From: Siphlonurus alternatus
Lineage: Eukaryota; Arthropoda; Insecta; Ephemeroptera; Siphlonuridae
Length of the DNA: 64,000 bases
Assembly (NCBI GenBank): GCA_949825025.1
Contig: OX463786.1
Location: 19,043,911-19,107,910, forward strand
Direction of reading: 5' to 3'
In this document: positions 15,582 through 63,676 of the stretch, in pieces
Layout of the letters: every line of letters starts with the position of its first letter
Position numbering within the stretch: position 1 is the stretch's first letter
The notes under the pieces: generated by a model
Told to the model about the DNA's origin: nothing
The model's database searches: none
What the model saw: the letters and a program-made list of their open reading frames with translations, nothing else
Program-made: the position numbers and the translations under genes

Positions 15582-15711
15582 TACGACTATATATGAATTT
15601 TTTAATAAAACAATCAATAAATTAGACAAAATCATTGATGTAAGGAAGTCAGTAATAATCGTTACTTACTCAGCATTGAATTTGACTTACATATTATATT
15701 ATTTATTATTT

Positions 15712-16104
15712 TTTTTTTAATTTTTAATCAAACCCTATTGGGTACTTCTAATTACATGCTACTTTGAAACCCCGAACCTTCCGAAACCCTAACTTGAGCG
15801 TTTCGTGGGCTCTTCCGGAACGGGGGCGGCCACGGCCTTGCAATCCATCCCGACATTTGCCTGCGACTGAGGGAAACGTGGAAACCTCAGCCAGGATGGA
15901 CGCTACAGCTTTTTTCAATGAACCGGAAATACAATGGTCCAAAGCCAGGGGAACCACATAGTGGAAAAGCGTAACAATTTACCCCTGGGTGGGAAACGTG
16001 GCTTTTGTTGAAAATGGTCACCCATCCAACTACTAACCACGCTCGGCGTTGCTTGACTTCGGTGATCTGACGAGACCCGGTCAAGCGCACTGCGCCACAC
16101 ACAT
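15712..16104 (-). repeat. SINE with 5S rRNA-derived head, full length
   Basis: On the minus strand the 5' end reads GTGTGGCGCAGTGCGCTTGA. It is followed by a clear 5S rRNA-like segment: TCTCGTCAGATCACCGAAGT, CAAGCAACGCCGAGCGTGGT, TAGTAGTTGGATGGGTGACC. These match the internal pol III promoter region of 5S genes (box A, intermediate element, box C). The body carries GGCTGAGGTTTCCACG and GCGGCCGTGGCCGCCCCCG-like sequence. The tail is GTACCCAATAGGGTTTGATT plus A-rich DNA. This places it in the 5S-derived SINE class (SINE3 type). Confidence 0.88.
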
Positions 16105-16528
16105 ATTATATTATAATGTTTGTCAAAAGTTTATATTCAGTATAGGGGAAGTATTATAGTTTGAAGAATGTAGTTATTATAGCTATAATAATATTAACTA
16201 GGGCTGGGGGGCCTTTACAAAAAGGCCCCAAATCAGTGTGCAGTGATCATTTGCAATGCCAGTCTTAATTTTTCAAAAAAAGTTTCAACGGGTTCGAAGA
16301 AATTGCAGGGGTTTTAAATAGGGGGCTTGGATTTGATAATATTCATGTTGTGAAAAATATTTGCATCAAAAAATATACAGAAATAAAAAATAAATAAAAA
16401 TAGTAATAAAAAATAATAAATAAAGCGAAGATACAGCACCTCTGAGTCGAGTAGGTCCACTTTCCATTGTCACCATTTATTACAAAGTCGTCAGCAACAG
16501 CAAAGCGAATCGTAGAAGGTGGGGCTCC

Positions 16529-16592
16529 TTAATCGGATGAAACCGGGAAAGCGGAATTCGGTAGGACTTTTTAATCGGATGAAACCGGGAAA
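16529..16592. repeat. Pair of 22-bp direct repeats
   Basis: TTAATCGGATGAAACCGGGA plus two further bases occurs at 16529-16550 and again at 16571-16592, a 42-base period. Similar AAACCG/GCGGAA words continue to 16610. Confidence 0.85.
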
Positions 16593-16815
16593 CCGAAAAG
16601 CGGAAGGGGGCTTATCAGAAGGAACCTGGTAGCGGACAGAGATTTAAAATAAATTCAGTATATAACCATTCACATTTTACCTTGCAAGTCTTGGTATCTG
16701 AGTCAACCTCGCTAGTCGGCGGTCAGAGAACGAATGACTGTTGAGAACGTCAACGACATTCTCAAAAATTTTGTAATCACGTCCTCTCGCCGTTCCCAAC
16801 AATGCTTGTTTACCC

Positions 16816-16853
16816 GTTGCCATGGCAACGACGATCCACAAGCTGTGACGTCA
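16816..16853. promoter_or_regulatory. RFX X-box next to a CRE
   Basis: GTTGCCATGGCAAC at 16816-16829 is a perfectly palindromic RFX-type X-box. TGACGTCA (CRE, bound by CREB/ATF-type bZIP factors) follows at 16846-16853. GGCGGGAAAC at 16881 and TTTCCCGCC at 16997 resemble E2F sites. The cluster is CpG-rich and looks like a promoter, but no gene start could be assigned to it. Confidence 0.45.
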
Positions 16854-17223
16854 TGCACATTACGGGGCCTCTCGAATGTTGGCGGGAAACCGTTCAAACC
16901 GCGGTGCACGCGCGATATAATATGCATGAAACGTGTTTCCCACCCAATAATGATCGCCAGCAGATTTAAATATTGCCGCCCGCTTTATTTTTTTATTTTC
17001 CCGCCTTCCTCGATCATTTCCGGTTCCCGACAGTACTAAATTCGAGTTTCTGGCATAATTTTACATGATACTGGACTGTAGAGGGGAGATTGATATGGCT
17101 CGCAACGCGTAAGAATAAAAAACATGCGTTCGTCACGGGTCCGCCATTCATACGCAGCTCGGCTCCTTCGGAGACCTCACCTAACCATACAATGGAATAA
17201 GATAGTGTTGGCCTTTCGAAAAA

Positions 17224-17335
17224 CAGCTCGGCTCGTTCCTCGCCTCGCTTAAAATTCTTGGATAGATGTGTGCGGGCAATGAATACATTGCCAACTCATA
17301 CGCAGCTCGGCTCGTTCCTCGCCTCGCTTAAAATT
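17224..17335. repeat. 33-bp direct repeat pair
   Basis: The 33 bases beginning CAGCTCGGCTCGTTCCTCGC and ending GCTTAAAATT occur identically at 17224-17256 and 17303-17335, 79 bases apart. A partial third start (CGCAGCTCGGCTCCTTCGGA) is at about 17154. Confidence 0.9.
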
Positions 17336-18226
17336 GAATATCAAATAAAATATATATTGATCTGAGCGTTAAATAATGGTTATTTTCAAACTCCAGGGAT
17401 GTTTTTACGTATAGAAAGTCAATTTAATATTTTATTTACCCTTAAATAACACCTGTACATTGAAATCATGCATGAAATCCAGCATGGTGCATATACGAAA
17501 AATTGGTATTTCACCCGCCGCCATCTTGTTTTTTGAGATAGGTAAAATCCGAGGCCAGATTCGTGATCAGCGTGGTCGATATAGTCAGAAACCATCGAAA
17601 ACTCAATTTCGATTTTTCCCCCTATCTTCCCCATGTATAAGCGGTGAGAGAAGGGGTACCCCTTCTGAAATTTTTGTCAAAAACATAAAAGTCCAAAAAT
17701 CTCAAGAACTATGGGTCGCAGCTTAAATCTGAAGACTGCATCTTGTCTGGCTCAAAAAACTGGTCTAGAAAAACTGGACAAATAATTTTTCGGGACAAAC
17801 ACTTTCCCGAAATCGGGATTTTGGATATCGAAAAATTCATATCTTCGATCGGGCCGCGTGGGCCCCCTATGTGCCGGAAAATTCCCAAATTTGGTTTTTG
17901 GGCATTGTTTTGGGTCCCCTACAACCTCCCGTCGAGAGTTTGCTCGAAAAAAAATTCCTTCCCCGAGTTTGGCGCAACCCGTAAAAAATGGGTATTTTGG
18001 CTGGCAGATCCGCCCGCAATGCTAATCAAATGGTCCCATGTTATTCTTATGGGGATTTGAGACCAGGCTTTCGTTTTAAAAAAAACGCACTTTCGGTGGT
18101 CGCAGGGGGTCGAGTCAGGTATCAAATTGAAGGGCACATGGTGTAGAGTCCATAAAGTGTCAGAACAAAGTTGTGGAACGTTGCGCTCTGCCGCCATATT
18201 GGATCCAAAACGCGTACTTTGAAGGG

Positions 18227-18243
18227 GGGGCCCTGCGGGCCCC
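18227..18243. other. GC hairpin
   Basis: GGGGCCC, loop TGC, GGGCCCC: a perfect 7-bp stem. The same design recurs at 18842-18862 (CCCC TTC GGGG), 17163-17173 (CTCC TTC GGAG) and in the terminal cluster. A further perfect palindrome GGGCCCCAGGGGCCC lies near 18764. Confidence 0.85.
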
Positions 18244-19595
18244 GTAAGACCCACATTCTTGAAACGCATATTTTTAGGCGTGAGAAGCTTAGTTTTAACA
18301 GGGTTCGATGAAAAAACACCATGTCAATAACGTAAAAAAAAAGTTATTCGGGAAAAGGATGCGTTTCCTATGTTATCCTTATGGGAGGAGGTTGTTTTGC
18401 ATTTCCCGCTTGCCTGGGCTAATTCTCATAGTTGGCATCGATTTGAAAAAAGTTTCTGAAAGAAAAAGAGTGTGGGCAACTTTCATACTGCGCGGAATTT
18501 TCGATTTCAGGTGTGCTCAAAAGTTATTCGAGGGGGAAAGTGGTCGATTTTTAGCATGCGTAAACCCTATGTTCCCATGCGATTTTTTGACTTTTTTGAA
18601 AATTGAAAAATCGAGCCGAAGAAAAGTTAGGACTTGCCAAAAGCTTTCAGAAAAAACCTTAAACTTGTTCCTAGCCAAAAAATTGCCGAAACTGTTGGGG
18701 GGGTTCACCAGATTGAAGCTTGCAAAAAAGCTTTTGAAAACTACCCCTCTGGAGGGAGCACAAAGGGCCCCAGGGGCCCAAATTGATATTGGTCAGATAG
18801 CCCGTTAAATTTGAATCCTGATGGGTCCCAATACAAAAACCGGGGGCCCCTTCGGGGCACCTTTTATGGGGTCCAAAAATAAAAGTTGCACCCCTAGGGG
18901 TTTCGGGTGCCATACTGTACGGATCCGGCCATAGCACGGTAAGTATGCTATGGAGGTGCCATGTTTGTATTTGGCGAAGCTGCGTCGTCTGTCGGGACAC
19001 ACTTTTGCTGTAGGAACCTTCACCGTAGCTCTTTAATCTAATGATTTAAGGCAAAGGCCGTAAAACACCTTTTTTTCGAGGTCCCAAACTTCCGGGGCCC
19101 GCAGCCGCGGAACCAAAACAGATAGGAGGGAGCTCACATGAAGCTTAAAGATGCCCGACACAGTCTTCTAACCGATTCGACCAAAAAAAGTTTCAGTTTC
19201 CAACTTTAAAAGACTTTTTTGGCAAAAACCGCAAAAACGGCGATTTTTTTTGAAAAAAACACTAAAACGAAGATAAAAAATTTTTGGAGCAAAAATTCAA
19301 AAATAACACCTCCCATATAAAAGTTTACGTCCCGGGCTACATTTCGCCCATTGGGACCTAAGCTCTAACTCTCAAAACCGCTTACCGGTGGTTTTTTAAA
19401 AAAATTAACATTATCGCTTATGGCGGGCGAACGGTGCACCGGACGCCATCTTTGAAGGCAAAAAGTAGGGGTAGCGCATGTTACCTAAAGCCGTTTTTGG
19501 GGTCAAAACGTCATTTTTCGGAAATTTTTGAAATTTCGGGAATTTTGAAAATCCCCTCCGGGAATTTTTGGGAATTTTTGGATTTTGAAAATGAC

Positions 19596-19684
19596 GGGTG
19601 GGGCCCTTCGGGTCCCACCCGGGACGCGCCCTGCGGGCGCGGCGGGGCCCTGCGGGCCCCGCGGAGGGCCCTCCGGGCCCCTCA
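19596..19684. other. Four tandem GC-rich hairpins at the block's right edge
   Basis: Consecutive stem-loops: 19596-19620 (11-bp stem with one G-T pair, loop TTC), 19625-19641 (CGCGCCC, loop TGC, 7 bp), 19642-19662 (GCGGGGCCC, loop TGC, 9 bp) and 19664-19684 (GGGCCC, loop TCC, 6 bp plus a bulge). The loops are always flanked CCC/GGG. The rest of the window has nothing like it. Confidence 0.85.
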
Positions 19685-19816
19685 AAGATTCTTGACCATG
19701 CATTTCAAATCAGAGATTTAGTGCTTTTAATATAATATAATAAAAAATTGATAAAAACATTGTTTTATAATACATATAGGAACTGATTTTCAAGTATATA
19801 TTTAAAACTTCCATTA

Positions 19817-21698: not shown

Positions 21699-22015
21699 AA
21701 TGAGATATTAGGATGCTAAAATTTTAGTGGCTTAATCGAAAGAAGGGGTAAAAATATGGTACTGTGAATTTTTTCAGATTTTTCTGAGACCGGGAACTAT
21801 TTTTAAAAAATTATTGAAAGTCTATTTTATGACGTCACGGACGGCACTACCCTATCTTTTTTCTTAAGGAGTGCCGCCCGGGACGTCATCAAAATAGACT
21901 TTCAATAATTTTTTAAAAATAGTTCCTGGTCTCAGAAAAATCGGAAAAAAATCACAGTACTATATTTACTCCTTTCGATTAAGCCACTAAAATTTTCACA
22001 TTCCAATATCTCATT
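21699..22015. repeat. CRE-bearing hairpin MITE (type A), copy 1
   Basis: The ends AATGAGATATTAG / AATATCTCATT and long internal arms (TTTTAGTGGCTTAATCG; TTTTTAAAAAATTATTGAAA) fold into a near-complete hairpin of about 317 bases. The loop side carries TGACGTCA at 21830 and the mutated mate GGACGTCA near 21890. A second copy is at 38189-38510. Confidence 0.85.
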
Positions 22016-24105: not shown

Positions 24106-24478
24106 GGAGGTGTGGCGCAGTGCGCTTGACCGGGTCTCGTCAGATCACCGAAGTCAAGCAACACCAAGCGTGGTTAGTAGTTGGATGGGTGACCATTTTC
24201 AACAAAAAAACACGTTTCCCATGCTTTTCCACTGTGTGATTCCCCTGGCTTTGGACCATTGCACATTCGGTTCATTGACAAAAGCTGTAGTGTCAATCCT
24301 GGCTGAGGTTTCCACGTTTCCTTCAGTCGCAGGCAAATGTCGGGATGGATTGCAAGGCCGTTGGCCGCCCCCGTTTTGGAAGAGCCCGCGAAACGTTCAA
24401 GTTAGGGTTTCGGAAGGTTCGGGGTTTCAAACTTATTAAGTAATTAGAAGTACCCAATTGCGGTTTGATTAAAAAAAA
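24106..24478 (+). repeat. SINE with 5S rRNA-derived head, full length
   Basis: The same order as 15712-16104 but on the plus strand: GTGTGGCGCAGTGCGCTTGA, 5S-like TCTCGTCAGATCACCGAAGT and TTGGATGGGTGACC, body TGGCTGAGGTTTCCACG, tail CCCAATTGCGGTTTGATT then poly-A. A short imperfect AATAATTATGA / AATAATCATGT match flanks it, consistent with an aged target-site duplication. Confidence 0.88.
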
Positions 24479-24924
24479 TAATAAAATAATCATGTTCCGT
24501 AAGAATAACACAGGGTACGATGATTATCTGATCAACAAGGCTGCAAATGGGAAATTTTCTGAGGTTACGAACGTATTTACAGTACTTAAAGTTCACTCAT
24601 CACCTCAAAAAATTTCTTACTTGCAGTCTTGTTAATCATCATATCCTGTGTTATTTATACTAGGCAAGGCTGCAAAGTGAATATTTTTGAGATGACTAGT
24701 GTAAAACCATATATATCAGACCTTATGGCCATGTGTGGTGGATTTTATAGTATATAAAGATGCTGGCTTATATATGAATAAACGAATAATGAACTTATTT
24801 TAAGTGCAGGAAATAATTTTAAGGACCTATCTTTTTATTTAGAAACAAATACCTGTCATAAAATGCTTGAAAATATGTTATACGTAACAAATAATAATTA
24901 GAGTAGCATTATATGGTCCGAGAA

Positions 24925-25833: not shown

Positions 25834-28800
25834 TTATGCAGTAACTGTTGAAGCCTTTTCAAGAGGATGTCCATAAGGGAGAACAATAAGATCAGGACGG
25901 GTTTCGGGGAGTCTACGAACAAGCATTATGTCCTCAGGTCCGAGTTTGACAGACTGTTCAGGTAAAATTACAAAACCTTCAGCAAAATTAATAGTTTCTT
26001 CTTCAGGTACAATAAAAGGTTGTTCTGGTGTAACTGATGGGAGTTTTCTTTCAGGTGTAGGTTGTTGTGGAGTTGGGATATTTCTCTCAGGTATATTAAT
26101 TCCTTTAGTAGGTATAGGTAAAATTTCTCCAGGTCGAGATATAGGTACATTTCCACGATGTCCTGGTAATAATAAACCTTGTTCAACTACAGGGAGACGT
26201 TTGCCAGGTAATGTCAATGATTTTTCAGGAACACCATACTCGGAAATTGGTGGGGGAGGGGGTGCTGGGGCAGGAGGGGGTGGAGGTGGGGGTGGAGGGG
26301 GTGGAGCGGGGGGTGCATAGACAGGTTTTGGAGGAGGAGCGGGGGGGGCGTAGGCAGGAGGGGGTAGAGGGGGGCGAGTAGGTGGTGGGGGAGGAGGAGG
26401 GGGGGCCGGAGCAGGGGGTGCATAGACAGGTCTTGGAGGAGGAGCGGGGGGTGCGTAGGCAGGAGGGGGTTTAGGGGGGCGAGCAGGTGGGGGGGGAGGA
26501 GGTGGTGGAGGAGGAGGAGGTGGTGGTGGGGGAGGAGGCGGTGGGGGAGGGGGCGGTGGGGGTGCAGCTGGAGGTCCGTAAGCAGGTTTCGGCGCAGGGT
26601 AAGGCCTCGCTGGCGGGTAAGGTCGATGTTCCTCCTTGACAGGTGGAGCGTAGAATCCTCCACGCGGCAGTGGCGCCTCCCCAAGACATGCGGTGAATGC
26701 AAGAAGCAAGATCAGCCCTTTCACCTGAAATTAGAATACAATCATTAGCTTTATATCTTAATTAACATATTTTAATTAAAATTAATTTACAAATTATGTT
26801 TAACAATAATCATTGTGATAATAAATTAATGAAAATTCTTTATGGTTATATAAAAGTTAATGCAATCTGTATAATAATATTAAAATTAAAATAATTACAA
26901 TTTTGAAGGTAAGAATGTCATACAAACGATGGCAAAAAGGCAGAGTGGTAATTGATTTCAAGTAAATATTTTAAATTAGATGGCTAGATAAAAGATAGTA
27001 ATTACTGCACTGATAAACACTATAAGTCATCATACAAATTTGCATACAATTTTTACTTACAAAAAATTCATCTCCATACAAACAAATGGAGTTAAAAGAT
27101 TTCTTGCAAGGAAAAATTTGAATTCAAAATTGTATCGTGTAATGTACAGGCTTTATATAAAGTACATAATATGTGAATACTTTTTTTAATTTTTCCCAGA
27201 TATTGCAACAATCCATAATAATTTACATTTAAAACTTAAGGATGAATCTCAGTAGGTTGATATCTTGCAATCGTACCGCCTGAATGCAACAAGACTTGCA
27301 GGGGACTTAGAACTCACCATCAATAGGTGGCATATAAATTTTGAAGCGAATCTGTCTTATCAGTTTTGTGAAAACTGAGGTAGAAGTTTAACATTGGCCT
27401 TATGGACGGAAACCGGAAATGGAGCTGTTGTAAGAAAACTGCAAGACTGAATCTGCTCAAACCATAAGCGATTAAGTTTTAGAACAATCTCGATTTTTTA
27501 AAATTTATTTCATTCGATTCGTTTGAAGGGAAATATTCTTTGATTCCGAAATAACTGAGATTAATCGTTAAATGTTTGGATAAAAGACAAGGAAATATTT
27601 AAACAATTCTGGTAGTTAAAGTGTAGGATTCTTTGATAAAATATATCATGGAGTTGAAAATAGTGATAAATTAACTTTATAATAAATTGCATTTGATTAT
27701 AGTAACAATATTAGAAATTAATCAAAAAGTCAGAATTGTAAAGCCATTATAAGATTTGTAAATTAAAATAAACTATACAATACTAAAAATATTTAAATTA
27801 TTAGTTTATGGACTCGGAAATTTATTAAACATTTACGTATTCATGCTACCGTATTTTTATGAATTTGAAATTAATTTACATTTTAGATTTTTCTTCTCAG
27901 TATGAATTAATTATTATAATGCTTTTAAGGGTAAGGTAACGTGAATCAGCTGTTTTTTTAGACCCATTTGATTAACATGTAAACTTTAGCAAACTCACAA
28001 AAATTCTGAAAAAAAAAATTTTTTTTTTGAGACAGATTTTAGTACCTAAAAGCCATGGAAAAAGTTTCAAGACAATTATTCGAGCCATTTTTTAAATTAT
28101 TATTATTATTATTTTCAATTTTCAGCATAGGGCTTTCCCATGGAGAGCCAAACTCAAAACCTACTTAAAAAAATCGGCTCGAATAATTGTCTTGAAATTT
28201 TTTCTGTGGCTTTTTGGGACTAAAATGTGTCACAAATTTTTTTCAGAATTTTTGTGAATTTGCTAAGGTTTACATGTTAATCAAATGGGTCTAAAAAAAA
28301 CAGCTGATTCACGTTACCTTCCCCTTAATATTTCATTTGCGAGCAAGTGTGTACTATTCTTCAATGCCAGTTGGAAACCAACAAATTTAATATATTACAA
28401 TATCCGATGCCTCACTTTCTCTGTTCACTCTTATCAATATAGTCTTTCAATATGATGTTTCCGGAATATAATTCCCACATTAATGATGGTAATATCGTAC
28501 AAAAATTGTAAGTTATAATTGTATTTAAAAAATTAAGATTCAAACATAAATTAAAAATTAAGAAAATAATTTGGAAATTAATAAAAATTATTAAAGATAT
28601 AGTTACAATAAAAACTAATTAAAATTATATATTGATTAAACCGCATAAATATAAATCATAAAATAAAAGAAAACCAATTAAATTTTAATTTCCATTAAAT
28701 CTATTGTAATTATTTTATTTTTAAAATTAAAAATATGCTACCGTATTTTTATAAATGATTTTTCATATTAAGTTGTTTAACATAATATTAAAAAATATTG

Positions 28801-30052: not shown

Positions 30053-30134
30053 TTTGTGAGATTTTGCGTTTAATAAAAACTATATATTATTTTATTAATA
30101 TTTATTAAATTAAGTAATATTTTTTTACCATTCA

Positions 30135-30440
30135 CCATTTTCAACAAAAACAACGTTTCCCAACCGAGGGGTAAATCGTTGAGCTTTTCCATTATGTGGT
30201 TTCCCTGGCCTTAGACCATTGCACTTTCGGTTCATTGACAAAAGCTGTAGCGTCCATCCTGGCTGAGGTTTCCATGTTTCCCTCAGTCGCAGGCAAATGC
30301 TGGGATGGATTGCAGGACCGTAGCCGCCTCTGTTCCAAAAGAGCCCGCGAAACGCTCAAGTTAGGGTTTCGGAAGGTTCAGGGTTTCAAAGTAGTATATA
30401 ATTAGTAAATAGAAGTGCCCAATAGGGTTTGATAAAAAAA
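30135..30440 (+). repeat. 5S-type SINE, 5'-truncated
   Basis: It starts within ATTTTCAACAAAA (just after the 5S-like region in the full element) and runs through the body (GGCTGAGGTTTCCATG) to the tail AGTGCCCAATAGGGTTTGAT plus A-rich sequence. Confidence 0.8.
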
Positions 30441-30469
30441 TATTTATATAATAATTTTATGAACCTTAA

Positions 30470-31013
30470 GCCGGTATTAAGCTGGTATTACACCATACAA
30501 TTTTGCATATAATTTTTCTTTGCAAGAAAATTTCATCTCCATACAAACAAATGGAGTTCAAGTTTTCTTGTAAGGAAAAATTGTATGCAATAGTTATCGG
30601 TATTAAGCCTGTATTACACGATACAATTTTACTTACAATTTTTCCTTACAAGAAATTTCATCTCCATACAAACAAATGGAGTTCAAGTTTTCTTGTAAGG
30701 AAAAATTGCATGCAATAGTTAGAAAAATTGTATCGTGTAATACCGGCTTTACACGATACAATTTTTCTAATTATTGAATACAATTTTTCCTTACAAGAAA
30801 ACACAAATTCCATTTATTTGTATGGAAATGGAATTTTCTTGTAAGGAAAAATTGTATGCAAAATTGTATCGTGTAAAGCCGGTATTGCACAATACAATTT
30901 TTCCTTACAAGAAAATTCCATTTCCATACAAATAAATGGAATTTGTGTTTTCTTGTAAGGAAAAATTGTATTCAATAATTAGAAAAATTGTATCGTGTAA
31001 TACCGGCTTTAAT
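30470..31013. repeat. Cluster of four tandem MITEs, 'ACACGATACAATTTT' family
   Basis: Four successive copies or half-copies of the palindromic unit: about 30478-30600, 30600-30750, 30745-30890 and 30880-31013. Each is bounded by ACCGGCTTT or AAGCCGGTAT and TGTATCGTGTAAT, and orientations alternate so the whole cluster can fold on itself. Units share CTTACAAGAAAA and TCCATACAAA. Confidence 0.85.
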
Positions 31014-31019
31014 AAATAA

Positions 31020-33731: not shown

Positions 33732-35578
33732 TTATGATGGTGGTCCATAGACAGGTCTAGGGGGAGGATATGTAGTTTGAGGTGGGGGAGGGGGAGGAGG
33801 TGGGGGCGGGGGAGGGGGAGGTGGGGGAGGGGGAGGTGGGGGAGGAGGGGGCGGGGGAGGTCTAGGTGGCACCCCATACTCATTACGAGGTTCCTCAAAT
33901 ACTTTTTGTGGTGCCTCAAATACTTGCTGTGGAACCTCATAAGTCTGTTTTGGTGCCTCATAAGCCTGTCTCGGTTCTTCATATACAGTTTTTTGTACAG
34001 CCAAATCAGTACGAGTATCAACCAATTTGTGCACCAGTTTAATATTAACATGTTCAGGAACTTGGTATGTCTGTTCTACCTTTTGAAGAACCTCAGGAGC
34101 TCCATAAACTGGTCTTGGGGGTGCGTAATAAGTTACTTTAGGTGGGGGAGGGGGCGGAGGAGGGGGTGGTGGGGGTGGGGGAGGAGGAGGAGGTGCAGAG
34201 TAGACAGGTCTTGGGGGTGCGTAATAAGACTCTTTAGGGGGTGGGTATACATGTCTTTGGGAAGGGTATTCCAGGCTCGGGGGTGGTTCTTCTCTAATTG
34301 GGGGTGAGTAAGTTTCCTCAGGGGGTAATTGTCCAAGTGGGGCATCCCCAAGACATGCTGCGCAGGATAGAAGCAAGATGACACCCTTCAGCTGAAACAA
34401 GAGAGAGAAATTATGTATTTTTTTTTTTTTTTGTCGAAAGTGTATTGAGAGGAAATATTGGTAAAACAATCCCAGAATTGTTCTAATTATAAGGAAGTAA
34501 TGAAAACCTAAAATAATGTTTTCTAATTTGTTTTCTAGACTTTAGAAGGGGCATTCACAAAGTCTTAAGGCCACATTTAAGGCTCGATAATTTTAAGCTT
34601 AATTTTAGGCGTGTTTTTTAGACCCAAAATTTCTGGTCTTAAATTATTGAGCCTTAATTGTGGCCTTAAGGATTTGTGAATGCCCCTTTAGGAAAATAAT
34701 TATCTATTTAAAACAAATATATTGTATATAAAATGATTACATATAGATTTAATAGAGTAACCCTCATTGTTGGCTTAATTTTTAATTAATTAATTAATTT
34801 TTTTCGTATTAAATTATTAAATAAAATTAGTATAAAAATACTTTATTTAAAATTTGTAAACAATATTGTAAAAATAATTTTTTTATTTTTTATAATTATT
34901 AATCAATTTACCTTTTAATAAAAAATATTACTACGTTATAATATTAATTTTGTGAAATATTAAAATTTTACATTATTTTAATTATTTTAAAACAATAAAA
35001 ATACATTTTACTTATTCAACAATTGTAATATGTCAATAAGATCAGTTGCAATGCGTGAAGCGTGTACTTAAAGTTCATCCTTCTAACATTTAAACCATAA
35101 TATGAATGATCTCCATTGAAATAATAGTACGTGGTTTGAGAATATATATGTTTAGATTTTTTAATGTCAGGGAGTACGGTACAAGCTACTATGAGAGTCC
35201 TATGCAGTTCAGTTAGAAACACTAAAAACTAATGACAGGAGCAGAGAAAAAGAGAATTGTATTTTTTCAGGTTGCAATAAAATTCCCAAATTATTTTAGT
35301 GGCATCATTTTTCAACCGCAAAAATTGCCTAAATATTACGAAGAATTATTTTTAACTGTTTTATTTTCAATTTTATGAAGAAATATTTTAGAACAATAGT
35401 CAAAGCTTCAATCCCTTCAGTAATAAATAAAAGTACATAAATCAAGGCTCTGATGCTAAAGAACTGTCAAATGTTGAACGTTAAAGAAAAATAATTAAAG
35501 AATAATATTTTAGATTTTTTTATCGGCAGAATATTATTTTACATTGAACTGAGAGACCTGGAGAGTACTTACAATCAT
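33732..35578 (-). CDS. Secreted proline-rich cuticle-like protein, paralogue 2 (221 aa)
   Basis: The same architecture as paralogue 1: exon 1 (35578-35573) is ATG ATT with donor GTAAGT; exon 2 (34391-33732) follows TTTCAG and continues LKGVILLLSCAACLGDAPLG, a signal peptide of about 17-19 residues. The mature chain has YYAPPRPVY-type repeats, two poly-proline tracts and a central segment with YEAPKQTYEVPQQVFEAP repeats. It ends PPPRPVYGPPS. Residues reading KLVHKLVDTRTDLAVQ match the motif MLVRRLPETRPDLIVL of paralogue 1 (LV-x2-L-x2-TR-x-DL-x-V). The Y/A/P-rich repeats suggest an extracellular structural protein, probably cuticle. Same strand, 4.7 kb upstream of paralogue 1's start: a tandem duplication. 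Confidence 0.87.
34544..34692. repeat. Hairpin MITE with AAGGGGCATTCACAAA ends
   Basis: The arms GGGGCATTCACAAAGTCTTA / TTAAGGATTTGTGAATGCCCC and GGCTCGATAATTTTAAG / complement pair over most of the 149 bases. It lies in the intron of proline-rich paralogue 2. Confidence 0.85.
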
Positions 35579-38111: not shown

Positions 38112-38650
38112 AATAAAAACAAAGAAAGTTTTAATAGAAGGTTAAGTAGCCAGTGTAATAGAACCAGCTCATCGTCAAGAATTCACTGAATGGGATATTA
38201 GAATGTGAAAATTTTAGTGGTTTAATCGAAAGAACGGGTAAAAATATGGTACTGTGAATTTTTTCAGATTTTTCTGAGACCGGGAACTATTTTTAAAAAA
38301 TTATTGAAAGTCTATTTTATGACGTCACGTGCGGCACTGCCCTATCCTTTTTCTTAAGAAGTGCCACCCGTGACGTCATCAAAACAGAATTTAAATAATT
38401 TTTTAAAAATAGTTCCCGGTCTCAGAAAAATCTGAAAAAATTCACAGTACCATATTTTTACCCCTTATTTCGATTAAGCTACTAAAATTTTTACATTCTA
38501 ATATCTCATTGCATGGCTACTGAATCTTCTATCATAACTTCTTTGTTTTCAATTTAAAAATTTTCATCATAGAAGGTTCAGTAGCCAGTCCAATGGAACC
38601 AGCTCGTCGTCAGGAGTCTATTGAACTGGCTACTGAACCTTCTATGATGA
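38112..38650. repeat. Palindromic repeat interrupted by a MITE, followed by an intact copy
   Basis: The unit AGAAGGTTnAGTAGCCAGT...GTAATAGAACCAGCTC is split: its left half is at 38125-38188 and its right half (GGCTACTGAATCTTCTATCAT) starts at 38514, with the type A MITE between. An intact palindromic copy follows at 38567-38650 (ATAGAAGGTTCAGTAGCCAG / CTGGCTACTGAACCTTCTAT). Confidence 0.75.
38189..38510. repeat. CRE-bearing hairpin MITE (type A), copy 2
   Basis: Nearly identical to 21699-22015 over its length, with two intact TGACGTCA octamers at 38320-38327 and 38371-38378 on either side of a short AT-rich spacer. Confidence 0.88.
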
Positions 38651-42500: not shown

Positions 42501-45500
42501 TACTGATGCATACTATCATAACCCCAAATTCCAATACTCAATTTGTAATTGTACAAGACATTATGAACAAAGTAGAATAAATAAATTTATAAATTAATAC
42601 TTTATAATTATAAAACCAATTTTATATATGTAAATGTTTAATGTAAATCACAAAATTAATAAATAATGAATATTTAAAGGGGTACCAAAGTGAATACTTT
42701 TTTTACATATTCGGGTAGCTAAGAATTATTCCAACATCTCTGTGGCACAATGTTTTCGTACAATGCCTAGTTATTTTACAATTAATTATTTAGTTTGAAA
42801 AGTGAGTTCTATGGCCGTTGATTGATTCAAGCCGATGCGCTCCCGCAGCGGCCGGTGATACGACAAGAAAGGGGCGGGAGGTGGTTCCCGTGATTCGCGG
42901 GAAATTCTCGTCGTATCAGCGGCTGCTGCAGGCGCGCACCGACTTGAATCAACCAACGGTTTTTGAACTCACTTTTCAAACTAAATAATTAATTTTAAAA
43001 TAACTAGGCATCGTACGAAAATATTGAACCACAGGGATATCAGAATAATTCTTAAGCTGCCCGAATATGTAAAAAAAGTATTCACTTTGGTACCCCTTTA
43101 AATTTTTTAAATTTTTAAATTATTTGTTAAATTATTATTTTCTTAAAAATATTTTAATAATTTTGAAAGTAAATAAATCTGAAAACAATTTATTTTAGAT
43201 TTTAAAAACACCAAGAATTAAAACAGCCATGCATAAATGAACCCAATATAATTGTAATGGCACATTATTAAAAAGTTTATAAATTTAACCTAATATTTTC
43301 ATTATTGTTGATACAATCATGTGTTCTATTTGATGTATTTGATACTTTACATTTAGTTATGTGCTTATTTTGTGTTCTATGATAATTTTCTCGTTTCTTT
43401 TTATTTTATTGACATCTAAGTTTATCTACATGTACAAATATAAAAATATCACAAATACATGAGTTTCCACCATGTTACAGCACTCCCCTGGTTCCCCGAG
43501 TCAAAATAGTCACGATCCACCAAGCTCTACGATACTCATTGACGACAATTTGCTTCGCGCTGGCTTGGTTGATATCGGTGATCGTGGCCGCGGTCGCCGG
43601 TAAACGATTCGTCACTTCGCCGGTCAGGCAGACCCTGATGTCAGGGAACGCACCCTCTCCTTCCCTGGCACTCGCCGTCATCGTCCTGTTATACCTGCTG
43701 CTCAGGGTACCGGCTGACCTGGTGAGTATGGAGTATTGTCCTCAATTTTTTTTATTGCAGAAATGGATAGAGGGTGCAAAGTTATGCTACCCTGATTTTT
43801 TTCAGATTTTTTTGAGACCTGGAACTATTTTTAAAAAATTATTGAAAGTCCTTTTTGTGACGTCACGCGGTGGCAAGTCCTATCTTTTTCTTAAGGAGCG
43901 GCGTCTCGTGACGTCACAAAAAGGACTTTCAATAATTTTTTAAAAATAGTTCCCGGGCTCTAAAAAATCTGAAAAAAATCAGGGTAGCATAACTTTGCAC
44001 CCTCTATCCATTTCTGCAATAAAAAAATTTGAGGACAATACTCTATTGTTGCCACTTAAGTGGATTTATATGATTCCCGAGCTAGTTGAAATAAATTTCA
44101 TCTTTTAAGCTCTCTTCTCGTCTTTTGTCCTATTTTGCACCATTTTAGAGGAAAAAATACGAGATTACCTACTTTTTCTTCTTATATATTGAGCATAAAA
44201 TTTTAAAAATATTAATATGTGTTTTTGAGGTAGAAAGACTTAATTACATTTAGATATGTAGAGAATGAGTTGAAGATGGAATTTTTCAACTCGATCGTAA
44301 AAATTATATATATGTGATTTAAAATTTGCAGTGATATAATATTATATAGTGAAACGTGTGTGATAAAAGTTCTACGATAAAAGTTACGTACCTCAAGAGA
44401 CTATGTTATTCGACTATTTATGTGCAAACAGTAAAACTTGTATATGCAATATTATTAATTTGTATCTGAGGTTATGTGTAAGAATGGCTGTCAAGCCAAA
44501 CATCGTCTAATAAAGAAATTTCTATTCTATCGTCAAGATAATACTTAAATCGTCTCTCCCACAGGCCGGACTGGTCCCCGGTGCTCGTCCCGCCACGCTC
44601 CATGCGGTGCTCACTTGGTTCCGGTTCTTCTTCTCCTCGGCCTCGCCACTGGCGGCGCTGACGTCGGCCGGCAAGTTGAGGGCCACCCTCGCTGCAATGT
44701 TGCACTGCTCCTCGCGATCAAGCTCCGTGTCGCCACCTGCAACCAGCCTAGCACTCATCAGGCAGGTAAGAAGCCTCGCTGGTTTTAGTCGTCTGTTCAC
44801 TGCGTTTAACTAAAAATGTAACATTAAGGGTAAGATAACACGAAAAATCGATTGTTGTAGTCCTATTTGATTAACATGTAAACCTTAGCAACCTCATAAT
44901 AATTCTGATTTTTTTTTAAGAGACAGTTCTTAGCACCAAAAAAATGTAGAAAAAATTTCAAAACAATCGCTCGATCCGATTTTTTTAAATTAATTTTTAT
45001 TAGTTTAGGTCTCCATGGGAAAGCCCTATACTGGAAATTTAAAAAAATCGGATCGAGCAATTATTTTGAAATTTTTTCTATACATTCTTTTGGTGCTAAG
45101 AACTGTCTCTAAAAAAGAATTATTATATGAGGTTGCTAAGGTTTACATGTTAATCCATTTTTTTCTTAAAGGTGTTCTAATAATACTATAAGAAATTTTT
45201 TTCCCTTCCCTTCTCAGCCAATATAGACTGCATGTGATTTCAGTATCTTATTTGCAATGAAAAGTGGGGGAACCATGACAACCTCAGATAAGATGGTCGG
45301 TTGATATACATTATCTAGAAATATATATAATATAAGCCTCTCATTAACTATATTTCTAGGTTTTATTGAGTTAGGCTAAGGCTAACCGTGGTTAGTGAAA
45401 AATCCCCCCCCCCCCTTTAACCCAAGTTATATACAAGACTAAAATCTAATATATTTTTCACAATGTTTCAGGTGACACAAATGCAAGTTCAAGCAAACTC

Positions 45501-46490: not shown

Positions 46491-46494
46491 TAAC

Positions 46495-46650
46495 TTAAGC
46501 TGGTATTACACGATACAATTTTTCTAACTATTGCATACAATATTTCCTCACAAGAAAACTTCAACTCCACTACTTTTGTTTGTATGGAGATGAAATTTTC
46601 TTGAAAGGAAAAATTGTATGCAAAGTTGTATCGTGTGATACAGGCTTTAT
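46495..46650. repeat. MITE, 'ACACGATACAATTTT' family, copy 7
   Basis: A well-preserved full unit: TAAGCTGGTATTACACGATA at left and TATCGTGTGATACAGGCTTT at right, with inner AACTTCAACTCC / GGAGATGAAATTT pairing. About 200 bases upstream of the CSP1 promoter. Confidence 0.85.
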
Positions 46651-46851
46651 ATTACGATATGTGTTTTTATGCAATGAAAAATTATAATATATGGCGTAGT
46701 AATTAGTATAATTTCCTTGAATCATAATTTTAACTGTAGCAAACAAGATTAAATGACCTTCAGCGAGAGGTCATTGGGTCAAATGTCAGCTCTGGTCAGC
46801 AGTTGGTTTTTCCTTATTATTAGTGCGCGTGCTTGCTTATGAGAACAAGAG

Positions 46852-47612: not shown

Positions 47613-51684
<4,072 letters not shown>

Positions 51685-54829: not shown

Positions 54830-55530
54830 TATTTGTTTATGTTTTAATTCTCTTCTTAATTTTGTAGTACTCTTTGGTTTGTGTAACAATGAATGTAGGA
54901 CGTGAAAGAAGTGCAAATTTTATTGCTCTTGGATTATATCAAATAACAATATTTCACAACTTATAATTATAGCTTTATAATAATTCTCTCTCTCTCTCTC
55001 TCTCTGAGGCAGCCTATCAATTAATATACAGTATATAGGTTCTATATATAGTATATACCATGATTACTAGAAAATAATTGAAAATAATGCCCCTCCCCCT
55101 TCAGCTGTTGTAGATTTTGAAAACAATAATATTATACGAAATCACTATATCACTCGATATCACTTTACGATATCACTATATTATATTATAGTGATAACTA
55201 TATTTTTAAATGACTGATGACCGTATAAAAATAAATTCAATAGTAATTTAGTTAACAATAGCGTAAATAAAATAACAATATTAATTAACAATGCATTTAG
55301 CTGTGGTGTCAGTCAACCTATCAACAGCTACATTTGTAATATATTTAAAAATATAGAATATCTGTTATAATATTTATTTTAGAAATTATTTGTAAATATT
55401 TTTGTCGTTAAATTTAGTTTGTTAACTTTCTCCAATTTGGTAATTCTACAAATGAAGACAATTGCTATATATACGATATATATAATATATTTTATATGCT
55501 GTATAAAATATATTTTAAAAAATTCATGTT
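54830..55530. other. AT-rich intergenic stretch with (CT)n
   Basis: A short (CT)n tract at 54984-55005; no gene. Confidence 0.5.
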
Positions 55531-55534
55531 ATAG

Positions 55535-55896
55535 GGATTTAAGGGTAAGGTAACGCCACCAATGTTAAAAAAATCCCTCACACAAAAATTCTGAAAAAAA
55601 TTTATAATGTTCTCCTCTACACCCCCTATCAGTAGCTAAAATATCAGGTATACAAATACGATCTAGTTTTTGAGTTATAAATTTTTAAAGTTGACTACTT
55701 TAACATGGAGAAATGAAACTTCCATGTTAAATTAGTCAACTTTAAAAATTTATAACTCAAAAACTAGATCGTATTTGTATACCTGATATTTTAGCTACTG
55801 ATAGGGGGTGTAGAGGAGAACATTTTAAAAATTTTTCAGAATTTTTGTGTGAGGGATTTTTTTTAACATTGGTGGCGTTACCTTACCCTTAAATCC
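55535..55896. repeat. Near-perfect hairpin element, type C relative
   Basis: GGATTTAAGGGTAAGGTAAC at left and GTTACCTTACCCTTAAATCC at right. The arms, about 165 bases each, are almost identical complements (AAACTAGATCGTATTTGTAT, CTACTGATAGGGGGTGTAGA) around a short loop. Confidence 0.93.
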
Positions 55897-55899
55897 TAA

Positions 55900-57960
55900 T
55901 GACATAATATGCTGAATTTTTTTTAAAAACTATAACTTATAAATATATTTAATACCATATATATATAATACGTAATGTAAAAATTTCCCTTTTTTTATTT
56001 TCTGCATAACTGTTGTGAATGATAATTATATTGCAATCCGCAATAGGCATAACATAATATAGTGCAATACAAAAGAATTCTGGAGATAGCCTATGCAGCA
56101 TAGAAATTAATACGCGAAATGTAAAGAAGGTAATATAATACATAAAAATCTCTATTTACATTGTCAAATTGGAAGAAAATTCATAAAATATAAAATCTAG
56201 TTATTAAACACAAATTACTATTAAAATTATCATAAAACATAAAAAACGTAATACACATAAAAAACAGAATGAAAATAAACTCAATAAAATAAGTATTTTA
56301 ATTTTAAAAACATAATTTTAAGATTTAGATTTGAAAATCTGTTGAAAACATCCTCTTTACGGGTTCACCGGGTTCATGTGCACTTTCCCCCAGGCATATT
56401 GGTATCAAGCTTGTCCCATTCCCTATACTTCTCTACTTGGCTCGTATAAACATATAAGAGGTCTCATGCTTGAATTTTCTACACAGTTTCTCAGCATCAA
56501 CGTAAATGATCAAACATTACACTTTTTGTTTATAAAAATCTTACATTTTCATTGGTTATGTAATTTCAAACTAACCAATAAGAATGTTAGATTTATATTA
56601 TCATAAAACTTTTGTGTTTATGGGAACAATTTTAGCGTCTACTTCCTAAATGTGATATTAGGAGTTCATAATTATTAGTAGGTTAGTTAAATATACGTAA
56701 TGATACTACTATATGTTCATGTGCTCCTGGGGAGTTGTAAGAGAAATGTTGTGCAGCCCTAAACATCAAGTTCGTGTTAGCAAAATGTCACTCATATTAT
56801 TAGTACATGTACCAAGTAAATTAATTTTTACATTGTATAAATGTAAATTTCTCCATGCAGATTTTATATAAACAATTATTAAATATTGCAATAACGTCAT
56901 TACGTCATTCCAAAAGCAACGCATATGAAAATATATTTATAAAAATATTCAGTAATGTATTTTTCCGTGATCCATTTATTAAGGCAGGGTCCATTGACCT
57001 CACTCCACTGCATATAGGACATAATTTTACTGGAAATACTTTAAAAAAAAATATGCTATTATAATATGAAGAATTTTATGTACAAAATAGATAGATATTA
57101 ATTATTAAATATAAAATCAATATAAATTAATATGAATTTTTAATAAAATTAATTAATTATTAAAAATGCATGAAACATATTATCAATAAAATCTACCTGT
57201 ACCCTTTTACGTGAATAATTGGCTTAGAAAAATAAGGAATAAATGGGAAAGAGGGTCTCTTTAAATCCTTTATACTCAAATTAATTGTGGATAGGAATTT
57301 TGTTAATTAAATAGGCAATGCATGGGTGGATTAGACACCAGCCTACTTTTTATGAGGAAAAAGAGAGAGAGAGGGCAAAAGAATCACCTCAATTCTTTTC
57401 AAATATATTATTTTTAAATTTTCACATAAGATTCACACATGTTGAACAAAATAAATTCTATATTATTTATAATAAAGCACGTGGAAAATATTCTGTAGAT
57501 GTATATAGCTTCCTGTATATTTCTGAACGCCTGATTCGTTGCGCAACTCACAGCTAGCGGTGCTCGATAGAAAATATATCGACGAACTATCGAATATATT
57601 GGAGCATTGTGACGTAAGGGAATATAAACATAACTACATAGTAAATTCAATGGTAAACAAAATATCTCCAATTACAATAAATATTAATTTAAAATTAAAA
57701 TTATCTTAATTTAATCAAACACATTTTTATACTTTTAATTATATATAAAGATTCAATTTTTTATACAGTCGATATGAGCTTTTACGATTTGTTAATTTTA
57801 CTGATGATTTTTGTAGTTTCATAATGCCCACAGGTTATAACTTGGGCTGTCCATGCAATCATTAAATTGAGGGAGGGGCGATTATAGGGCGATGATGGAG
57901 TTACAGTGATCGCCCCCGCCTACTATAATAAAAGTGCTTATATATTTTGTATGCCATTCA
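55900..57960. other. AT-rich intergenic stretch
   Basis: No supported gene. A small CpG-bearing patch at 57525-57600 repeats TATCGA/TCGATA words. Confidence 0.4.
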
Positions 57961-62369: not shown

Positions 62370-63150
62370 GTAAATAAATAATTATATTTATTATAATTCA
62401 AGGCGTTGAATGTGCGTCTGTGTTGACTAAGTAATGTTTTTTATTATTCAATTCAATTATTTAATCACTGGATGTACAAGTACAACATCATGGATTACGT
62501 CATTTTACAAAATAACAAACACTGAAACACTTTACAACAACCCATAATATAATAAAAACAGTTACTAACAAGGCATATATAAACAATATTAATTATTTAT
62601 ACATAAATATTTAAAAAATTACACTAGACAATATATCCTCAGGCAACTTATTGCTAAAAAAAACATCTTTACAGGATAAAATTCTTTGTTAATAAGTATT
62701 TTTTTAATTTTAATTTTTCCTTTTTAATTATCCATTTGTTTTTGTCAATTTGGTCATAGTAACTTTGTGATGCCAGCAGATTTGAATGAAAGAAAATAAT
62801 ATATTAATATATTTTAAAAGAAAATGAATGGCATTGAAACCAATCAATGTCAATCAATGTCAATTAATTTTGAAAACAAATTCAGTGCAATTTATTTATT
62901 ATAATTTACTATGTACACTTACATTACCAAATAATAAACTTAGAGTAATATACAAATTTATATTTATTTATTGCGTTACATTTTCTTTTCTCGATATTAA
63001 TTTACTCATTGCTGCATGTTGATATTATTTGTTTTCTTTGTTCCAATATACAGTCAATACGTAGAACAACAAAAGACATGAGAATAATTTATAATTTCCA
63101 ATATAATGATAAATATTCTGACTAATTTAAAAAAAATAAATCCTTGAAGT
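62370..63150. other. AT-rich stretch
   Basis: Nothing supported. A TTTAATCACTGGATGTACAA start near 62460 weakly resembles the element end at 32187. Confidence 0.35.
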
Positions 63151-63157
63151 ACCTATA

Positions 63158-63488
63158 TTAAGGTAGAGATAATATGTATCAGCTGGCCCAATGCTAAAAA
63201 AATCCCATTCATAAAAATTATGAAAAAAATTTAAAATGTTCTCCTCAACATCCCCTATCAGTAGGTAAAATATCAGGTATACAAAAACGAGCTAGTTTTC
63301 GAGTTATGAATTTTTAAATTAGAGAACTTTAAAAATTCATAACTCGAAAACTAGCTCGTTTTTGTATACCTGATATTTTACCTACTGAGAGGCGATGTTG
63401 AGGAGAACATTTTAAATTTTTTTCATAATTTTTATGAATGGGATTTTTTTAGCATTGGTCCAGCTGATACGTATTATCTCTACCTTAA
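63158..63488. repeat. Near-perfect hairpin element, type C relative
   Basis: The ends TTAAGGTAGAGATAATATGT / ACGTATTATCTCTACCTTAA. The arms contain AAACTAGCTCGTTTTTGTAT and its complement, directly comparable with 55535-55896. Confidence 0.92.
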
Positions 63489-63676
63489 ACAATTTTATTT
63501 AAATATATTTTTTTTATCCTGCACATCAAATTAAAATATTGAATATTTAAATTATCATTTAAATAATTAAAACAATATAGGCTCGTAATTAAAATAACTA
63601 TATTTAAAACTTAATGTAATAAAGCTATGAATTGATTACAAAAAAAAAATGTATCATTAAAGTTCCTGAATATCCC

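What the first reader, a model, noticed from the sequence alone, without database searches (positions are those of the whole stretch)
16201..19700. Isolated GC-rich block with repeated ultra-stable CCC-NNC-GGG hairpins
Seen: about 3.5 kb of GC/CpG-rich DNA in an A/T genome, opening with a 9-bp hairpin at 16208-16229 and carrying at least seven stem-loops of one design (loops TTC, TGC, TCC closed by CCC/GGG). No ORF looks like a known protein. Inference: either a horizontally acquired or viral/mobile segment, or a structured non-coding RNA locus driven by the promoter-like cluster at its left part. This is my best candidate for something undescribed.
Basis: partly seen in the sequence, partly recalled or inferred. 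Interest (0 to 1): 0.75.

Follow-up and report, generated by a model that had tools for sequence, protein, structure and literature searches.

The report
Protein-less rolling-circle jumping element
The GC-rich block is one of many copies of a recently active jumping DNA element that resembles the Helitron type and makes no transposition protein of its own; its hairpins lie partly at its two ends and it seems to carry a copied piece of a host promoter, so it is an interesting variant of a known kind of mobile DNA rather than a new RNA locus or a virus.

Summary
In the window's own 456-Mb genome its 5' end occurs at 122 places, its 3' end at 112, and an internal 48-aa frame at 141. The unit is window 16198-19740, minus strand, 3.54 kb. 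Its 3' end is a 9-bp hairpin, 6 nt, then CTAG. The base after it is T in 23 of 23 copies; the base before the 5' end is A in 34 and G in 6 of 40 non-tandem copies; target duplications do not exceed chance. That is the pattern of a Helitron (rolling-circle transposon), here without Rep/helicase. It departs from canonical Helitrons in starting TT, not TC, and has four GC hairpins within 150 bp of its 5' end. The head-to-tail pairs that could be tested look like independent insertions. The genome holds Helitron Rep genes at 5 places; GC-rich DNA beside three of them has CCCTAG|T ends. Near its 3' end the element carries a promoter-like block and a frame ending at a splice-donor-like site, probably captured host DNA. 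Not shown: an empty site, a matched helper, any transcript.

The parts
16198..19740 (-). whole transposable element, 3543 bp; 5' end at 19740, 3' end at 16198
   Evidence: ends shared by 23 full copies with different flanks; 5' end at 122 and 3' end at 112 places in the genome
19714..19740 (-). 5' terminus TTATATTATATTAAAAGCACTAAATC
   Evidence: preceded by A or G in 40 of 40 non-tandem copies
19596..19680 (-). 5' array of four GC hairpins: 19666-19680, 19642-19662, 19625-19641 (perfect stems) and 19596-19620 (one G.T pair)
   Evidence: the fourth by my reading of the sequence
18227..18243 (-). internal hairpin of the same design, 7-bp stem, loop TGC on +
18846..18858 (-). internal hairpin of the same design, 5-bp stem, loop TTC on +
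17163..17173 (-). internal hairpin of the same design, 4-bp stem, loop TTC on +
   Evidence: hexamer at 17166; stem by my reading
17224..17335 (-). two identical 33-bp repeats (17224-17256, 17303-17335)
   Evidence: 33-mer present in 23 of 23 copies
16816..16888 (-). promoter-like block: E2F-like TTCCCGCCAA, CRE-like TGACGTCA, X-box-like GTTGCCATGGCAAC (motif names recalled)
   Evidence: each in 22 of 23 copies
16680..16823 (-). 48-aa open frame whose end overlaps a splice-donor-like AAG|GTAAAATG; probable captured first exon
   Evidence: kept in 23 of 23 copies; 141 matches in the genome, 6 with a stop; no purifying selection
16208..16229 (-). 3' terminal hairpin, 9-bp stem
16198..16201 (-). 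3' terminal CTAG, followed by host T at 16197

Best explanation
Window 16198-19740 (minus strand) is a young non-autonomous Helitron-like transposon. A Rep/helicase made elsewhere in the genome would nick at the 5' end, peel off one strand by rolling-circle replication, stop at the 3' hairpin plus CTAG, and insert the copy between a purine (mostly A) and T without duplicating the target. The GC hairpins would fold in the displaced single strand, the 3' one as end signal, the four near the 5' end as part of the left end that the transposase reads. The promoter-like block and the 48-aa frame would be captured host DNA carried along. Shown: the repeat family, its ends, its flank bases, no duplication above chance, tandem partners that are not nearest relatives, and Helitron Rep genes in the genome. 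Inferred: rolling-circle movement, which helper moves it, the roles of the hairpins, and the capture.
For: 3' hairpin then CCAGCC-CTAG in 23 copies, T after it in 23 of 23, 19 of them host T; purine before the 5' end in 40 of 40 non-tandem copies, A 34 and G 6; no direct repeat beyond shuffled pairing in 16 insertions; 122 and 112 terminal matches, 0 in reversed controls; mean divergence 2.8%, two copies on different contigs 0.11% apart; copies joined as CTAG-TTATATT, as described for adjacent maize Helitrons (PMC2267711, passages); Helitron Rep domain at 5 places, one in a 2066-codon open frame with PIF1 helicase; GC-rich DNA beside three other Rep loci has six CCCTAG|T ends, five followed by TCTA.
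Against: The element starts TT, not TC (45 of 45 5' ends). G instead of A before it in 6 of 40. No empty site was obtained: one search gave matches crossing the junction by only 4 bases, none. No Rep/helicase element shares a long match with it. The PF05970 helicase search did not complete. No RNA or activity data.
Confidence: 0.85

Rival explanations
1. It belongs to the Helitron2/Helentron side (a DINE-1 or HINE-like element) that inserts between two Ts, the leading T being host sequence.
For: T stands on both sides if the leading T is host; hairpins near both ends, as reported for Helitron2 (PMC3627910, passages).
Against: Inverted repeats near the ends are not above chance: 181 of 2000 shuffles and 171 of 902 interior pairs score as high. 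In one tandem pair the copy on the 5' side is younger (1.0% against 4.5% from the column majority), and its junction CTAG-TTATATT fits a leading T that belongs to the element. Rep motifs at 4 of the 5 Rep loci read RGLPHAH and the fifth NWLPHAH, the L of canonical Helitrons by PMC4067079.
Confidence: 0.1
2. It is a structured non-coding RNA locus whose hairpins act in RNA.
For: All 8 CTNCGG hexamers read as C(UNCG)G in + strand RNA.
Against: No Rfam match in the block; the same hexamer is C(GNA)G in minus-strand DNA, so the loops do not tell RNA from DNA; 5 of 20 further 5' ends have lost whole or part hairpins.
Confidence: 0.03
3. It is a remnant or satellite of a viral or polinton-type element.
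For: One copy is interrupted by about 11.6 kb with an integrase frame (rve and chromo domains) and frames that I read as capsid, ATPase and protease.
Against: That insertion lies between two parts of the element that overlap by 7 bp, as a target duplication would; 7 block ORFs have no family; no relative in phage or viral collections.
Confidence: 0.02

Closest known systems
Canonical non-autonomous Helitron (Helitron1)
   Same: CTAG 3' end, hairpin just before it, T after it, mostly A before the 5' end, no target duplication above chance, no transposase, many recent copies
   Different: starts TT instead of TC; four GC hairpins near the 5' end, where Helitron1 is described as having a hairpin only near the 3' end (PMC3627910, passages)
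GC-rich Helitrons at C6:2.82-2.98 Mb of the same genome
   Same: high GC, six CCCTAG|T ends, five followed by TCTA and some by TCTATATTAAAG
   Different: start TC; lie beside Rep genes; no long match to this element
Helitron2, Helentron, DINE-1/HINE
   Same: hairpins near both ends; FoHeli1 and FoHeli2 have a GAA-loop hairpin at the 5' end (PMC5148889, passages)
   Different: no asymmetric terminal or subterminal inverted repeats found; CTAG end
Adjacent head-to-tail Helitrons of maize
   Same: G/T junction CTAG|T and origin by consecutive insertions (PMC2267711, passages)
   Different: there two different elements; here copies of one family, up to four 5' ends in a row

Membership tests
Canonical Helitron (Helitron1) | 5' end TC | tested here: not met
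   TT in 45 of 45 5' ends read
Canonical Helitron (Helitron1) | 3' end CTRR | tested here: met
   CTAG; the 23 copies were picked by this end, but the open search lists 90 of the first 100 places without mismatch, and 2 of 100 end CTAT
Canonical Helitron (Helitron1) | 16-20 nt palindrome about 11 nt before the 3' end | tested here: met
   9-bp stem ending 10 nt before the end
Canonical Helitron (Helitron1) | insertion between A and T without duplication | tested here: inconclusive
   A 34, G 6 of 40; T 19 of 19 host flanks; no duplication in 16 insertions; no empty site found
Canonical Helitron (Helitron1) | Rep/helicase partner sharing the ends | tested here: inconclusive
   Rep at 5 places; similar type of ends at three, no shared long sequence
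Helitron2/Helentron/HINE | asymmetric or subterminal inverted repeats | tested here: not met
Helitron2/Helentron/HINE | insertion between T and T | tested here: inconclusive
   no empty site
Helentron | partner with endonuclease fused to Rep/helicase | not tested
   no search for this fusion was made
Polinton/Maverick | viral-type genes in the unit | tested here: not met
   7 block ORFs without family
Known structured RNA (Rfam) | match above gathering score in the block | tested here: not met
   only match in the window is 5S rRNA at 48266-48387

The most novel reading that the evidence does not exclude
The element is a mobile promoter cassette: it captured a cell-cycle-type host promoter (E2F-, CRE- and RFX-like motifs) with the first coding exon and splice donor, and spread it to about 140 places, where it can start fusion transcripts in neighbouring genes; and its 5' array of GNA-loop hairpins is a new kind of left-end signal for a Helitron transposase.
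Probability: 0.2. Interest if true: 0.6.

Novelty: new variant of a known kind. Interest (0 to 1): 0.35.

Why it matters
It turns a puzzling GC island into a recently active, Helitron-like family with sharp ends. The 5' hairpin array offers a testable idea of what a transposase may read at the left end. If the captured promoter works, about 140 near-identical promoter-plus-exon copies in one genome would be a natural experiment on how transposons rewire genes.

Tried and rejected
Coding gene: no Pfam family at cut-off for 7 block ORFs or for the 48-aa frame; no relatives for two ORFs; best PDB match of the 48-aa frame at E 0.18; 2 synonymous and 11 non-synonymous changes in 23 copies against 36 and 111 sites, so no constraint. 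Phage or viral relative: none. Subterminal inverted repeats: not above chance. Concatemers as origin of the tandem pairs: disfavoured, since the partner ranks 3rd, 8th and 22nd of 22 in the three pairs tested (the fourth fetched pair has a broken second copy and was not in the alignment; only 23 copies were compared, so the ranks are rough). Helper among long 5'-3' pairs: the 15.1-kb pair holds a polinton-like insertion; of three probes inside the 16.6-kb pair, one is partly the element and two are other window repeats; of ten probes 2.5-2.8 kb upstream of 3' ends without a listed 5' partner, 6 were the family, 1 reads as a non-LTR retrotransposon and 3 are unidentified. Two short stretches resembling the 5' end near two Rep loci had E 0.89 and lie on the opposite strand to Rep; taken as chance. 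Parental host exon: one weak candidate, C6:5272100-5272195, 75% identity over residues 13-44, not readable. The L021 empty-site query and the PF05970 search did not complete.

Full report
1. What was claimed and what is there. GC of the block is 0.44 against 0.30 outside, CpG observed/expected 1.08 against 0.86. Triloop hairpins with stems of at least 6 bp number 10 against a shuffle mean of 1.5 and maximum of 6 in 200. The 8 CTNCGG hexamers on the + strand of the element all stand at hairpin tips, one of them weak; the minus strand has 3 such hexamers. The same hexamer is a C(UNCG)G loop in + strand RNA and a C(GNA)G loop in minus-strand DNA. That both are unusually stable is recalled (one search gave only a listing), so the loops do not tell RNA from DNA.

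2. It is a repeat. In the window's own assembly (456 Mb, 102 contigs) the block matches 31 listed places (25 of 388 candidates scored), 94-99% identical, most over the full length. The 5' terminus occurs at 122 places (up to 2 mismatches) and the 3' terminus at 112 (up to 3), each with 0 in the reversed control (100 places listed in each). The genome looks insect-like from gene fragments in the window; this is my reading and no search confirmed it.

3. Anatomy. Comparison of 23 full copies fixes the ends; copies without both exact ends, such as L027 and the second copy of L012, were left out. On the minus strand the unit begins TTATATTATATTAAAAGCACTAAATC at 19740 and ends with a 9-bp hairpin (16208-16229) and CCAGCCCTAG at 16198. 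Lengths are 3.49-3.55 kb, mean pairwise divergence 2.8%, range 0.1-6.5%. Two copies on different contigs differ by 0.11%, so movement is recent. After CTAG comes T in 23 of 23, of which 4 are the first T of a following copy. Before the leading T stands A in 34 and G in 6 of 40 non-tandem copies; the other 5 of the 45 ends read follow another copy's CTAG. Sixteen insertions show no direct repeat beyond shuffled pairing.

4. Head-to-tail copies. Several places hold copies in a row, up to four 5' ends, joined as CTAG-TTATATT. In three pairs the partner ranks 3rd, 8th and 22nd of 22 in similarity, so fresh insertion beside an old copy fits better than concatemers, though only 23 copies were compared. 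In one pair the 5'-side copy is 1.0% and its neighbour 4.5% from the column majority; a younger copy inserting at the older one's 5' edge fits best if the leading T belongs to the element and the target is R|T. A maize study describes the same G/T junction and favours consecutive insertions (PMC2267711, passages); elsewhere tandem arrays are cited as support for rolling-circle movement (PMC5876387, passages).

5. Which kind of element. CTAG, a hairpin ending 10 nt before the 3' end, T after it, mostly A before the 5' end and no duplication fit canonical Helitrons as defined in PMC4067079 (parts 1 and 2 of 8 read) and PMC5876387. The 5' TT does not. Helitron2 and HINE features: hairpins near both ends yes, inverted repeats no. 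Helitron Rep (PF14214) is found at 5 places; one lies in an open frame of 2066 codons whose second part matches PIF1; two others have stops in the match. Beside three Rep loci on C6 lies DNA of 51-57% GC with six CCCTAG|T ends in the same orientation as Rep, five of them followed by TCTA, i.e. head-to-tail Helitrons of canonical type. They are the nearest kin found, but no long match joins them to this element, so the helper is not identified.

6. The hairpins. Four lie 60-144 nt from the 5' end, within the roughly 150-bp left terminal sequence described for Helraiser (PMC5876387). Of 20 further 5' ends, 5 have lost whole or part hairpins (L056, L057, L059, L062, L073) and one more (L061) is broken by other sequence. 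A GAA-loop hairpin at the 5' end is reported for FoHeli1 and FoHeli2 (PMC5148889, passages). A role in end recognition is inferred.

7. Captured host DNA. Near the 3' end an E2F-like, a CRE-like and an X-box-like motif (22 of 23 copies each) stand before or at an ATG that opens a 48-aa frame kept in 23 of 23; its end overlaps AAGGTAAAATG, also 23 of 23. The median 10-mer of the element is kept in 91% and the median 14-mer in 87% of copies, so this is no sign of constraint, and the changes show no purifying selection. A 101-aa frame on the other strand is kept in 21 of 23. The 48-aa frame matches at 141 places of 150 scored, 6 with a stop. I read this as a captured promoter and first exon; the parental gene is not identified.

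8. Limits. No empty site, no RNA data, no relatives of this genome. Paper searches on Helitron ends, tandems and insects listed 1, 13, 15 of 59 and 8 papers; of these I read parts or passages of six (PMC4067079, PMC5148889, PMC6544945, PMC3627910, PMC5876387, PMC2267711) and saw no description of this family there.

Noticed in passing
window 15705-16105, 24110-24490, 30134-30455, 48274-48698: A dispersed repeat with a head related to 5S rRNA (Rfam 5S match at 48266-48387, 44 bits); four copies in the window are 86-93% alike, as for a 5S-derived SINE.
   Followed up: partly
L044-L045 (G000:C2:37094750-37110000): One copy of the element is interrupted by about 11.6 kb with an integrase frame (rve and chromo domains) and frames that I read as capsid, ATPase and protease, flanked by a 7-bp overlap of the element: a polinton-like insertion.
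   Followed up: partly
G000:C6:2.82-2.98 Mb (L038-L043): GC-rich Helitron arrays beside three Rep loci, with direct CTAG|TCTA junctions.
   Followed up: partly
window 21699-22015, 27925-28328, 38188-38510, 42639-43134, 55476-55966, 63128-63516: Long near-palindromes that match their own reverse complement at 79-91%, several related to each other: fold-back elements.
   Followed up: no
window 30475-31014: Tandem array with a period of about 125 bp and scattered relatives at 1133-1289, 27032-27189 and 46494-46652.
   Followed up: no
window 25834-26730 and 33732-34541: Two proline-rich open frames on the minus strand that look like cuticle or secreted repeat proteins; not searched.
   Followed up: no
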